Shown piece by piece: positions 16,173 through 26,743 of a stretch of DNA of 36,609 bases. Location: NCBI GenBank assembly GCA_900290335.1, contig OKRD01000097.1, positions 1 to 36,609 of the forward strand, in the 5' to 3' direction. The notes below the pieces were generated by a model that saw only the letters and a list, made by a program, of their open reading frames with translations, was not told the DNA's origin and did not search any database. This DNA is from Burkholderiales bacterium. Lineage in GTDB: Bacteria > Pseudomonadota > Gammaproteobacteria > Burkholderiales > Burkholderiaceae_F. The position numbers and the translations under genes were made by a program. The first letter of the stretch is position 1. Each line of letters opens with the position of its first letter.

Positions 16173-16409
16173 GCATAGCCTCCTCGTGGATTTCCCTTTC
16201 GGGATCAGCTGCCCGCCATCTCGCATCCCACGGCACGTGTGCCCCGGGGCGAAGCGAAGCGGCCGTGCGCCGATGTCACCGGCCGTCGTGGCGACGGCCA
16301 AATGATCGCGGCAGTACGGGCCCCCTCGCGCAGGAAAAAATGCAGTGCAGCAAGGAAAAAGCCGTTAATGTTACCTTGAAAAGCAGGCCCGCAGCAAGGA
16401 AGAGTCTTA

Positions 16410-16434
16410 TCCAATGAGGTATGAGCCTGAACGG
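16410..16434 (+). repeat. terminal repeat copy 1 (TCCAATGAGGTATGAGCCTGAACGG)
   Basis: 24/25 identical to the copy at 16449-16473. Confidence 0.85.
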
Positions 16435-16448
16435 CCGGTTTTCGTGTT

Positions 16449-16473
16449 TCCAACGAGGTATGAGCCTGAACGG
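16449..16473 (+). repeat. terminal repeat copy 2 (TCCAACGAGGTATGAGCCTGAACGG)
   Basis: Direct repeat of 16410-16434 with a 39 bp period. Confidence 0.85.
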
Positions 16474-16526
16474 GTTTAGTTCGGCGACCTTTTAAGGGCC
16501 GCCGGGGTGGGTCGATCATCGACGGG

Positions 16527-17780
16527 ATGGTGATCGACATGAACGAATCGCAGATCCGCACCCTGGATCAGGTACGGGCGTTCCTGAATGGGACGCTCGC
16601 GGTTGAGTTCAAGCCCCTGGGCGACGATACGGCGCGCTACCGGCACATCTGTGAGGTGCTGCGCCGATTTAGCTACCACCGGCTCAGGAAGGGGGAGCGC
16701 GGATGGGTGCTGCGCTACCTGCGCGCCACCTGCGGCTTTAGCCGCGCGCAGCTGACCCGGCTGGTGGCCCGCGCCGCCCAGGGCGAGACGCTGGCCAAGC
16801 GCTACATGGCGCCGTCGCAGGCCTTCGCCCGGCGCTTTACCGATGCCGACATCGTGCTGCTGGCCAAGATCGATCAGCAGTTTGGCACCCTCTCGGGCCC
16901 GGCCACGGCGCATCTGCTGCAACGCGCCTTCTCGGTGTACGCCGACGAGCGCTTCGAGCGCCTGGCCGGTGTATCGGTCTCGCACCTGTACAACCTGCGC
17001 CACAGCTTCCGGTATTGCGCCCAGCGCGTCGCCCATACGCCAACCCACGCCACCGCCGTGAGCATCGGTACGCGCAAGGCCCCGGCCCCCGAGGGGCGAC
17101 CGGGCTTTATCCGCATCGACAGCGTGCACCAGGGCGATTGGGACGGGGCCAAGGGGGTCTACCACGTCAACGCGGTCGACTGCGTCACCCAGTGGCAGGT
17201 GGTGGGCTCGTGCCCCCGCCTTATCGAGGCCTTCATGCTGCCGTTGCTCGAAGCGATGTTCGCCCAGTTCCCATTCCGCATCCTGGGGTTTCATGCCGAC
17301 AACGGCGGCGAGTACATCAACTTTCACGTGGCCAAGATGCTCAACCGGCTGCACATCAAGTTGACCAAGTCGCGCCCTCGCAGCAGCAACGACAACGCCC
17401 TGGCCGAGACCAAGAACGGCGCCGTGGTGCGCAAAATCTACGGCTATGAGCACATCGCCCAGGAGCACGCGGTGCTCCTCAATGCATTCAATCGCCGCTA
17501 CCTCAACCCGCTTCTGAACTTACACCGCCCCTGCCTGTTCGCCACCGAAGTGCCCGATCCCGATAAGCCCGGACGCACGCGCAAGGTCTATCGCCACACC
17601 GACGTCATGACTCCGCTCGAGAAACTGACCACCGTGCCCGAGGCTGCCTCGTTCCTGCGTCAGGGCATCAGTCTGCAGGCGCTCCAGGAACAGGCCAGCG
17701 CCAAGACCGACCTGCAAGCGGCCACCGAATTTAACCGCGCCAAGGAAAAACTCTTCGCCACCATTCGGCGCGCCGCCTAA
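16527..17780 (+). CDS. DDE-type integrase/transposase (rve-like catalytic domain)
   Basis: RIDSVHQGD ... GFHADNGGEYIN ... SSNDNALAETKNG; exactly 35 residues between the second D and the E (D-D-35-E). Confidence 0.9.
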   Translation: MVIDMNESQIRTLDQVRAFLNGTLAVEFKPLGDDTARYRHICEVLRRFSYHRLRKGERGWVLRYLRATCGFSRAQLTRLVARAAQGETLAKRYMAPSQAFARRFTDADIVLLAKIDQQFGTLSGPATAHLLQRAFSVYADERFERLAGVSVSHLYNLRHSFRYCAQRVAHTPTHATAVSIGTRKAPAPEGRPGFIRIDSVHQGDWDGAKGVYHVNAVDCVTQWQVVGSCPRLIEAFMLPLLEAMFAQFPFRILGFHADNGGEYINFHVAKMLNRLHIKLTKSRPRSSNDNALAETKNGAVVRKIYGYEHIAQEHAVLLNAFNRRYLNPLLNLHRPCLFATEVPDPDKPGRTRKVYRHTDVMTPLEKLTTVPEAASFLRQGISLQALQEQASAKTDLQAATEFNRAKEKLFATIRRAA

Positions 17781-17807
17781 CCCACGGCAGCAAAACCTCC
17801 AGGCACG

Positions 17808-17826
17808 GCGGGGGCTGCGCCCCCGC
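17808..17826. other. strong GC hairpin downstream of the integrase gene
   Basis: GCGGGGGC-TGC-GCCCCCGC, perfect 8 bp stem 27 bp after the integrase stop codon; no T-run. Confidence 0.5.
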
Positions 17827-17925
17827 ACCCCCGCTAAAACATTCGAAAAATCCGAGGAAAACCCAACCCTCTAAACTGCTGGAATCTTTAACCAATCGAT
17901 CCACCCCGACACCGCTTCCAAACCA

Positions 17926-17954
17926 GCCCGGTCAGGCTCAAACCTGATTTGGAA
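17926..17954 (-). repeat. inverted copy of the terminal repeat
   Basis: Reverse complement TTCCAAATCAGGTTTGAGCCTGACCGGG matches copy 2 with one single-base gap and a few mismatches. Confidence 0.7.
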
Positions 17955-19037
17955 ATGACTGTGAGCTTTGAGCTCGGTGACCGGTCGTGGAAGCTCAGCT
18001 GCAGCGATGGGGTCCGCAGCCCAAGCCGGTACTCGGTCAATGCGGGTGACCAGGTGACGGTTCTGGACTGTCTGGACAAGGCGCGAGCGCGATGTGGGCT
18101 GGATCCGCAAGCCAAGGTGCATACCTGTTATGAGGCCGGCCGTGACGGCTGGTGGCTGCACCGCTGGTTGCGTGAGCAAGGCATCGACAACATCGTGGTC
18201 GACTCCTCGAGCATTGAAGTGAACCGGCGCGCAAAACGCGCCAAGACCGATCGGCTGGATGCCGACAAGCTATTGGCGTTGCTGCTGCGCTTTCACCGCG
18301 GTGAGCGGCGCGTGTGGTCCGTAGTGCACGAGCCCACGGCGAAGCAAGAGGATGCGCGTCGCACACACCGGGAGATCGGACGGCTGATACATGAGCGCAT
18401 CGCTCATACCAATCGCATTGGATCACTGTTGGTCATGCACAACCTGCGTCCTGGACGCATCGGTGGGCGCACCTGGCAGGGCTGGTGGGAGGGTCATTGC
18501 AAACAGGTACCGCCGCTGCTGCGCGCAGAGATCGAGCGCGAGTACGCAAGGCTGGTACTGGCCAAACAGCAGCTCAATGCCCTGGAGACCGAGCGACGAC
18601 ATGAGGTGGCCGAGGGCGCGCATCCGGTTGTGGCGTTGCTGGCCAAGCTTCGCGCCATCGGGCCGCGCGGTGCCTGGATCCTGGACAAGGAGTTGTTTGG
18701 CTGGCGGCGCTTTGCCAATCGACGCGAGCTGGCGGGCTGTCTGGGCCTGGCGCCCACGCCGTACGCCAGCGGTACCTCTGAGGGCGAGCAGGGCATCAGC
18801 AAAGCGGGGAACAAGCGATCGCGTGCGCTCCTGGTGGAATTGGCGTGGCGGTGGCTAAAGTTTCAGCCAGACAGCGCCTTGAGCCAGTGGTTTCATCTGC
18901 GCTTTGGCATCGCGGGCAAGCGCTCGCGGCGCATTGGCATCGTGGCGCTGGCGCGGCGTTTGGCGATTGCCCTGTGGCGATACATCGAATGTGGCGAGAT
19001 CCCGGCCGGGGCAACCCTCAAGACGGTCGAGGCTTGA
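17949..19037 (+). CDS. IS110-family transposase (DEDD/RuvC-like plus Transposase_20 domain)
   Basis: CYEAGRDGWWLHRWL, RAKRAKTDRLDADKL, AIGPRGAWILDKELFGWRRFANRRELAGCLGLAPTPYASG...GISKAGNKRSRALLVELAW; start uncertain (TTG 17949, ATG 17955 or GTG 17961). Confidence 0.93.
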   Translation: MEMTVSFELGDRSWKLSCSDGVRSPSRYSVNAGDQVTVLDCLDKARARCGLDPQAKVHTCYEAGRDGWWLHRWLREQGIDNIVVDSSSIEVNRRAKRAKTDRLDADKLLALLLRFHRGERRVWSVVHEPTAKQEDARRTHREIGRLIHERIAHTNRIGSLLVMHNLRPGRIGGRTWQGWWEGHCKQVPPLLRAEIEREYARLVLAKQQLNALETERRHEVAEGAHPVVALLAKLRAIGPRGAWILDKELFGWRRFANRRELAGCLGLAPTPYASGTSEGEQGISKAGNKRSRALLVELAWRWLKFQPDSALSQWFHLRFGIAGKRSRRIGIVALARRLAIALWRYIECGEIPAGATLKTVEA

Positions 19038-19080
19038 CGAATCCGCCCAATCGAACGGCCTGGCACGCGATACGACATCA

Positions 19081-19350
19081 TGATCAAAGGTCAACGCGCC
19101 CGAAGTGTCCGCGGGTCACCCGTCGGTGACCGTCCGAAAAGATGGGGCGCGTTGGTAACTGGGGCTTCACAGAGCGCCTTGCGCGCATACCGTATGTGGT
19201 GTCCGGACCTTTGCTCCGGCACGGATAGAAGCTCGTCCGAGCTCTGGCTCGAACGCTCATTACGCCCCGACCCAGGATCAGGATGCAACCGCCAGCCATC
19301 TTCAATTACCGAACAACGAGCGCCGCCATGAGTACCGGTTGACCGATCAA
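19081..19350 (+). ncRNA. candidate IS110/IS1111-type bridge RNA region
   Basis: Non-coding tail of an IS110 element with nested complementarity: TGATC-aaa-GGTCAAC (19081-19095) with GTTGACCGATCA (19338-19349); CAACGCGCCC (19092-19101) with GGGCGCGTTG (19145-19154); GGTCACC-cgtc-GGTGACC (19114-19131); GTG-t-CCGGA...TCCGGCAC (19199-19222). Confidence 0.5.
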
Positions 19351-19365
19351 AGTTTCACAAGGGGC

Positions 19366-19371
19366 TTGACA
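19366..19371 (+). promoter_or_regulatory. TTGACA -35-like box near the IS110 right end (possible junction-promoter half)
   Basis: Exact TTGACA near the probable right end; IS110-family circles are known to assemble a promoter from a right-end -35 and a left-end -10. Confidence 0.4.
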
Positions 19372-19386
19372 AATGAGTCCTCATAG

Positions 19387-19437
19387 AAGCGGACAATCAA
19401 TTAGCTACAAAACCGGACAGTTCTATTCGCTCTCGAC
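19387..19437. mobile_element. possible relic terminus of an IS21-like element
   Basis: AAGCGGACAATCAATTAGCTACAAAACCGGACAGTTCTATTCGCTCTCGACA has two spaced CGGACA boxes and the terminal dinucleotide CA, reminiscent of IS21-type multiple end repeats; no istA/istB present. Confidence 0.3.
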
Positions 19438-19497
19438 AGGAAGCCTGGAGCCAGGAAGCCTTGAGCCAGGAGGCCTGGAGCCAGGAAGCCTGGAGCC
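19438..19497. repeat. 4 x 15 bp tandem repeat (AGGAAGCCTGGAGCC)
   Basis: AGGAAGCCTGGAGCC/AGGAAGCCTTGAGCC/AGGAGGCCTGGAGCC/AGGAAGCCTGGAGCC, ending 1 bp before the methyltransferase stop codon. Confidence 0.95.
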
Positions 19498-19498
19498 C

Positions 19499-20353
19499 CT
19501 AGCGGCCGCCGGCGGTCGCCGCCCGCACGATGTGGCCGCCACGGTCCGATGCGGGCCCTTCGCGGGACGCAAAATAGCGCTGGCGGATCACGACCGGCCC
19601 CAAGTCCTCGAGCTCGCAAAAGCCCAGTGCCCGGAGCCTTGCCAGGAGCTGCGACGTTTCGAAGCGGCTCCGGAAGGCTTCTCCCAGGGACGCAACGCGC
19701 GCTTCGAGCGCCTCGCGGACGGCACGAATTTGCTCGTCGGCGCAGGCCGGATCCGGCGGGTTGGCGTAGTCAAAGACGACGTGGGCGCCCGCGGGCAGCT
19801 TGGCAATGAACTCGAGCGTGGCAAAAACCGCCTGCGGCGTCAGGTACGGCACGACGCCCAGCCAAGTGAAGAAGGTTGGCAGCGCAAAATCGAAACCGGC
19901 GGTCGCCAGCGCCTGCGGCAGGGCTTGCCGCTCAAAGTCGATCGGCACGAACGTGAGCGTGGCAGGCACCGCGATCGCGGCCTGCGCCAGGCGCTCTCGC
20001 TTCCAAGCCTGGGTGGCGGGGTGATCGACCTCGAAGATGTGCAGGCCCTGCGCCGGTGGCGCGCGGTAGGCATGCGTATCGAGCCCCGCTCCGAGTATCA
20101 CCAGCTGGCGCACGCCGTGCGCCAGCGCATCGGCCAGCGCGTCCTGGGCAAAGCGCGTCCGTACGGCAATGAACAGGCGCAGCGGCCGCACCGAGGGATC
20201 ACTGCGCGCCTCGCGCAGGGCCGCCTGCGCCTCGGGCCCCAGTATGCGCAGGGCAAGGGGATCGCGCAGGATGCGTCCGCCCTCGAGCTCCTGGTGGACG
20301 GCGCGGTGCGCCGCCGCTCCCAGCGCAGTTCGACTTGGCAGTCCTGGCTCCAT
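19499..20353 (-). CDS. class I SAM-dependent methyltransferase (TIGR00027/LCM-like family)
   Basis: RTRFAQDALADALAHGVRQLVILGAGLDTHAYR, FEVDHPATQAWKRERL, FTWLGVVPYLT. Confidence 0.88.
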   Translation of the reverse strand: MEPGLPSRTALGAAAHRAVHQELEGGRILRDPLALRILGPEAQAALREARSDPSVRPLRLFIAVRTRFAQDALADALAHGVRQLVILGAGLDTHAYRAPPAQGLHIFEVDHPATQAWKRERLAQAAIAVPATLTFVPIDFERQALPQALATAGFDFALPTFFTWLGVVPYLTPQAVFATLEFIAKLPAGAHVVFDYANPPDPACADEQIRAVREALEARVASLGEAFRSRFETSQLLARLRALGFCELEDLGPVVIRQRYFASREGPASDRGGHIVRAATAGGR

Positions 20354-23593: not shown

Positions 23594-23643
23594 TCGCCCT
23601 CCGCTGTCGTGCCCAGGTGGCGAAATTGGTAGACGCGCTAGAT

Positions 23644-26743
<3,100 letters not shown>

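What the first reader, a model, noticed from the sequence alone, without database searches (positions are those of the whole stretch)
19081..19350. Candidate bridge RNA in the 3' non-coding tail of the IS110 element
IS110-family elements carry a structured non-coding bridge RNA with two internal guide loops; in the IS1111 group it is reported on the right-end side. Here ~350 bp downstream of the transposase has no convincing ORF but has several perfect inverted repeats: a 12 bp closing stem with 3 nt bulge (19081-19095/19338-19349), a 10 bp stem (19092-19101/19145-19154) around a 7 bp hairpin with 4 nt loop (19114-19131), and another bulged hairpin (19199-19222). Stem - internal loop - stem is the layout expected of a target-binding loop. 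CAAC at 19092-19095 is shared by two stems, so they cannot both be complete at once.
Basis: partly seen in the sequence, partly recalled or inferred. Interest (0 to 1): 0.75.

Follow-up and report, generated by a model that had tools for sequence, protein, structure and literature searches.

The report
Guide RNA gene of IS1111-type transposon
The stretch downstream of this transposase gene encodes a conserved, folded guide RNA of the recently described 'bridge RNA / seekRNA' kind, and its guide sequence can be read directly against the DNA the element sits in; it is a solid new example of a known system, in a copy that has lost its left end.

Summary
The finding is right in kind and partly wrong in detail. 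Downstream of the IS110-family transposase lies a conserved structured RNA, window 19071-19280. About 28 relatives share it, with compensatory changes in 19 of 47 base pairs (0/500 shuffles). A covariance model built without the window copy or its closest relative finds it at 8.5e-55. The element belongs to the IS1111 group: relatives have subterminal inverted repeats and the non-coding region downstream of tnp. The guides can be read. The 5' side of the first loop (19106-19112, TGTCCGC) is the exact reverse complement of the DNA abutting the element's right end (19389-19395, GCGGACA). The same rule holds in 25 non-redundant elements (94% identity vs 54% permuted, 0/20000) and in 7 held-out ones (96%). 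The 3' side matches the left flank more weakly. The second loop matches the element's own ends. The window copy is 5'-truncated: an IS481-like element (16403-17960) replaces its left end and the first codons of tnp, so it is probably immobile. No transcript or protein binding was tested. Verdict: new member of a known kind, in a decayed copy.

The parts
17961..19037 (+). IS110-family (IS1111 group) transposase/recombinase gene, 5'-truncated by about 20 codons; the ORF now starts from TTG 17949 or ATG 17955 inside the terminal repeat of the neighbouring IS
   Evidence: Pfam PF02371 E 6.3e-14; NCBIfam NF033542 'IS110 family RNA-guided transposase' 174 bits, above cut-off 140; homology to L002 begins at 17960; the C-terminal SG motif (S274) aligns with IS621/ISCro4 structures 8wt6/9t56
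19071..19280 (+). bridge RNA / seekRNA gene (conserved structured non-coding region)
   Evidence: alignment of 28, covariation 0/500 shuffles, hold-out covariance model R2 E 8.5e-55
19082..19091 (+). 5' arm of the conserved closing stem (GATC...GGT)
   Evidence: helices 1 and 2, 94-95% of cells paired, changes on both sides in 3 pairs
19270..19279 (+).
19092..19154 (+). target-binding stem-loop: outer stem 19092-19101/19145-19154, inner hairpin 19114-19131
   Evidence: helices 3 and 4
19106..19112 (+). [quoted passage not shown]
   Evidence: exact reverse complement of 19389-19395; rule holds in 25 + 7 elements
19133..19141 (+). putative left-target guide TCCGAAAAG (same sense as the top strand of the left target plus core AG)
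   Evidence: left-guide test in 16 relatives 53% vs 34% permuted, 0/20000; not testable in the window, whose left flank is lost
19186..19196 (+). putative right-donor guide CATACCGTATG (pairs with the left end of the element in the circle)
   Evidence: GCAT/GTAT in the RNA follows ATGC/ATAC in the left end across relatives
19199..19222 (+). donor-loop inner hairpin
   Evidence: helices 7 and 8
19223..19231 (+). left-donor guide GGATAGAAG, same sense as the right end CATAGAAG
   Evidence: CACGGATAGAAG invariant in the alignment
19366..19389 (+). right end (RE): TTGACA (-35-like) plus subterminal repeat AGTCCTCATAG, ending CATAGAAG
   Evidence: conserved in relatives; sTIR partner in relatives' left ends AGATGCTATGTGGGACT
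19389..19440 (+). right flank = right terminal repeat of an ISNCY-family IS, the insertion target
   Evidence: about 83-93% identical to right ends of uninterrupted copies in other genomes; transposase of one such copy NF033594 346 bits
16403..17960 (+). IS481-like insertion sequence that replaced the left end of the element (terminal repeats AGTCTTATCC... / ...GGAAATGACT)
   Evidence: terminal repeat alignment, homologue ending at the same place, best NCBIfam hit IS481 but below cut-off

Best explanation
Window 19071-19280 encodes the bridge RNA (seekRNA) of an IS1111-group element. In intact relatives, excision joins right end and left end, apparently making a junction promoter (TTGACA in RE, 17 nt, GATGCT at the RE-LE joint); the RNA lies downstream of tnp. 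The RNA folds into a closing stem and two loops. [quoted passage not shown] Loop 2 pairs with the donor: its 3' side GGATAGAAG with the right end, its 5' side with the left end. The recombinase, held by the RNA, joins donor circle and target at a shared AG core. This copy went into the right end of an ISNCY element and later lost its left end to an IS481-like element, so it is now probably a fossil. Shown: conservation, covariation, guide-flank complementarity, donor-end complementarity, truncation. Inferred: transcription, recombinase binding, core position, catalysis, immobility.
For: Covariation: 93.8% of cells paired, 19 pairs and 48 cells with changes on both sides, 0/500 shuffles on all five measures, and slid partners drop to 30-45% paired. 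A model built without the window or its closest relative finds 19071-19280 at 183 bits, E 8.5e-55, and it is the only match at E <= 1 in the genome search. Model R1 finds the RNA directly downstream of tnp in seven plasmid relatives not used to build it, E 1e-27 to 1e-36. Right guide vs right flank: 25 non-redundant elements 94% identity vs 54% permuted, 0/20000; 7 hold-out elements 96% vs 51%, 2/5000 tie. Left guide: 53% vs 34%, 0/20000. Donor guides. The right guide of the window differs from that of its same-genus relative L002, and so does the flank, each guide fitting its own flank. Published experiments on other IS1111 elements show a downstream NCR-derived RNA bound to the transposase, with the top-strand match 5' of the bottom-strand match (PMC11187229); the order here is the same.
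Against: No transcript or RNA-protein data. The window copy has no left end and no left target half, so neither the left guide nor the donor junction can be checked in it. The predicted full target TCCGAAAAGCGGACAAT was not found at an intact ISNCY end in 200 related genomes; the three one-mismatch hits are elsewhere, about what chance gives. No Rfam match, which is expected if the family is not curated. The register of the guide varies by one base between elements.
Confidence: 0.95

Rival explanations
1. Conserved protein-coding or regulatory region (for example the 83-aa ORF 19080-19331 or an mRNA-level control element of the transposase) rather than a guide RNA.
For: An 83-aa ORF is open across the region.
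Against: Two short loop segments are hypervariable and track the genomic flank of each copy; indels of 1-2 nt occur in the alignment; compensatory pair changes. Neither a protein nor a simple mRNA element would follow the flank.
Confidence: 0.01
2. The inverted repeats are chance features of GC-rich DNA.
For: Folding energy of the 353-nt tail is no better than shuffles, z 0.07.
Against: Conservation, covariation and the hold-out model.
Confidence: 0.01
3. Right RNA, but the window copy is still functional: tnp expressed from the ATG provided by the IS481-like terminal repeat and acting in trans with its RNA on other IS1111-type ends.
For: The reading frame is intact, SG and acidic motifs are kept, and an in-frame ATG lies at 17955.
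Against: No other copy of the element or RNA in the 84%-complete genome; no junction promoter without a left end; about 20 leader residues missing.
Confidence: 0.05

Closest known systems
IS1111-group seekRNA (ISEc11, ISPa11, ISKpn4; Siddiquee et al. 2024, PMC11187229)
   Same: NCR downstream of tnp, sTIRs in relatives, two short guide segments in one RNA, top-strand match located 5' of bottom-strand match, different targets in close relatives
   Different: separate sequence family with no Rfam match; here the RNA is about 200 nt by conservation, whereas experiments found 82-96 nt peak forms and about 150 nt for the long form of ISEc11; not shown to be expressed
IS621 / IS110-group bridge RNA (Durrant et al. 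2024, PMC11208160; structures 8wt6-8wt9)
   Same: two loops, one for target and one for donor; short core; donor pairing on one side looks discontiguous (RNA CATGCAGCA vs DNA TGCTATG)
   Different: RNA at the right rather than left end; guide order reversed; core appears to be AG; right guide is 7-9 nt

Membership tests
IS110 family (DEDD/serine recombinase) | RuvC-like N-terminal and PF02371 C-terminal domain with SG motif | tested here: met
   PF01548 matched below its cut-off (24 vs 29 bits), NF033542 above cut-off; the first acidic residue appears to be E in this subfamily
IS1111 group | subterminal inverted repeats at both ends (intact relatives) | tested here: met
   LE CTATGTGGGACT / RE AGTCC(C)CATAG
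IS1111 group | subterminal inverted repeat at the left end of the window copy itself | tested here: not met
   no left repeat in the window; left end replaced by an IS481-like element, so the copy is a truncated member
IS1111 group | longer non-coding region downstream of tnp | tested here: met
Bridge RNA / seekRNA | conserved structured RNA with two internal loops | tested here: met
Bridge RNA / seekRNA | one loop complementary to both strands of the target | tested here: met
   right half strongly, left half moderately; in the window only the right half can be tested
Bridge RNA / seekRNA | other loop complementary to the donor (joined element ends) | tested here: met
   ATAGAAG shared with RE in all relatives checked; GCAT/ATGC vs GTAT/ATAC follow each other; compared by eye, no permutation test run
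Bridge RNA / seekRNA | RNA is transcribed, bound by its recombinase and needed for transposition | not testable with these tools
   needs experiment

The most novel reading that the evidence does not exclude
This subfamily is a naturally retargeted series: closely related recombinases and RNA scaffolds whose 7-9 nt right guides and left guides have been exchanged many times, so that the targeting rules of an IS1111 recombinase (guide length, core AG, tolerance of register shifts, discontiguous donor pairing as in IS621) can be read from genomes alone.
Probability: 0.6. Interest if true: 0.4.

Novelty: new member of a known kind. Interest (0 to 1): 0.3.

Why it matters
It gives a bridge-RNA subfamily with no Rfam match, a 39-47 pair model, readable guides and many natural target changes in Burkholderiales. 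Intact relatives (Variovorax, Paraburkholderia, Rhizobacter) are ready candidates for RNA-guided recombination tests, and the series tests the guide-target rule by natural covariation. The biology itself is the already published mechanism.

Tried and rejected
Rfam at gathering and at E <= 1: no match. Thermodynamic folding as evidence: not informative. Search for the window's left repeat: absent. Search for an empty predicted target in related genomes: only chance hits. Search for further copies in the genome: none. A viral-contig scan gave no answer and was not repeated. PDB search with the single protein found nothing; with the alignment it found IS621 and ISCro4, C-terminal part only. A scan of 299 genomes of the order with the RNA model found only the window and one weak partial match, so the family is rare within this part of the order (stricter filters).

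Full report
Setting. The window is one contig of a draft Burkholderiales genome (2.76 Mb, 175 contigs, 84% complete); the order is inferred from its same-genus relative, the peat-soil MAG SbB2 that supplied L002. The ORF 17949-19037 is an IS110-family transposase. It is the only copy in the genome.

Observation. A fold of the whole tail is not better than shuffles (z 0.07), so the case cannot rest on energy. Relatives decide it. Of 53 loci encoding a relative, about 30 complete ones carry a similar stretch downstream of tnp, alignable from window 19075 to about 19290, then a variable linker, then a second conserved stretch at the right end. Left ends of relatives do not resemble the window's.

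Structure. On an alignment of 28 sequences a nine-helix structure, drawn from the RNAalifold consensus and partly by hand, pairs in 93.8% of cells, with changes on both sides in 19 of 47 pairs; none of 500 shuffles reached any of the five measures, and sliding the partners by 1-3 columns drops pairing to 30-45%. Relatedness inflates such shuffles, so I also built a model from 26 sequences without the window and without its closest relative L002; it finds 19071-19280 with 183 bits, E 8.5e-55, and nothing else in the whole-genome search at E <= 1. The conserved closing stem is GATC..GGT (19082-19091) with ACC..GATC (19270-19279).

Target loop. Between the outer stem (19092-19101/19145-19154) and the inner hairpin (19114-19131) lie two variable segments. 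The 5' segment, read as reverse complement, equals the DNA that follows CATAGAA at the right end: window TGTCCGC: GCGGACA (19389-19395); L003 GCAGTCGTT; L012 GTGGGCATCG; L029 GGGACTTCGC; L041 GCGGTGACA. Over 25 non-redundant elements, allowing a one-base register shift in data and permutations alike, identity over 8 bases is 94% against 54% permuted, 0/20000; in seven elements not used to find the rule it is 96% against 51%, with two of 5000 permutations tying. The 3' segment fits the left flank plus AG, e.g. L013 CCCGTAAG, L081 CTTATAG; over 16 elements 53% against 34%, 0/20000, weaker partly because no register shift was allowed. The order, top-strand match 5' of bottom-strand match, is that reported for IS1111 elements (PMC11187229).

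Donor loop. GGATAGAAG (19223-19231) repeats the end of the element CATAGAAG, in all relatives checked. The other side reads GCAT where the left end reads ATGC, and GTAT (GTAA in L002) where it reads ATAC. This was compared by eye, not permuted. In most elements the pairing skips two RNA bases (CAT-GC-AGCAT vs ATGCT-ATG), resembling the discontiguous donor pairing described for IS621 (PMC11208160); that similarity is my reading.

State of this copy. Relatives start with AGATGCTATGTGGGACT and have sTIRs; the window has none. Instead an IS481-like element with terminal repeats occupies 16403-17960 and homology to the IS1111 element begins at 17960/17961. The right flank is the end of an ISNCY-family IS: twelve copies of that end in other genomes are uninterrupted at this point. 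So the element went into an ISNCY end and later lost its left part together with the left target half. The predicted target TCCGAAAAGCGGACAAT was not found intact in 200 relatives; ISNCY ends elsewhere do mostly read AAAAGCGGACA or similar.

Verdict. A bridge RNA / seekRNA of an IS1111-group element: new member of a known kind, in a truncated copy. Transcription, binding and activity are untested.

Noticed in passing
window 17961-18000 and alignment: The position expected for the first acidic residue of the DEDD motif reads E (SFELGD) in the window and nearly all aligned relatives, D only in L027; the alignment to solved IS621/ISCro4 structures covers only the C-terminal part, so the equivalence is not proven.
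   Followed up: partly
window 16403-17960: IS481-like insertion sequence with repeated terminal motif GAGGTATGAGCCTGAACGG (twice at its left end); a 76-base copy of its left end lies at the edge of contig C38 of the same genome.
   Followed up: partly
window 19389-19440: About 50 bp remnant of the right end of an ISNCY-family IS, used as the target.
   Followed up: yes
L017 3089-3285: A relative whose RNA has lost the 5' guide and part of the outer stem (GGTCTGGGTCAC), a likely broken bridge RNA next to an otherwise similar element.
   Followed up: no
L012 3668-4350: Two bridge RNAs with different guides lie about 470 bp apart, each with its own right end; looks like nested or tandem element remnants.
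   Followed up: no
window 19440-19500: Short tandem repeat (aagcctggagccagg) just beyond the 3' end of the LCM-type methyltransferase gene on the minus strand (19499-20353).
   Followed up: no
window 23611-23695: tRNA-Leu (CAG).
   Followed up: no
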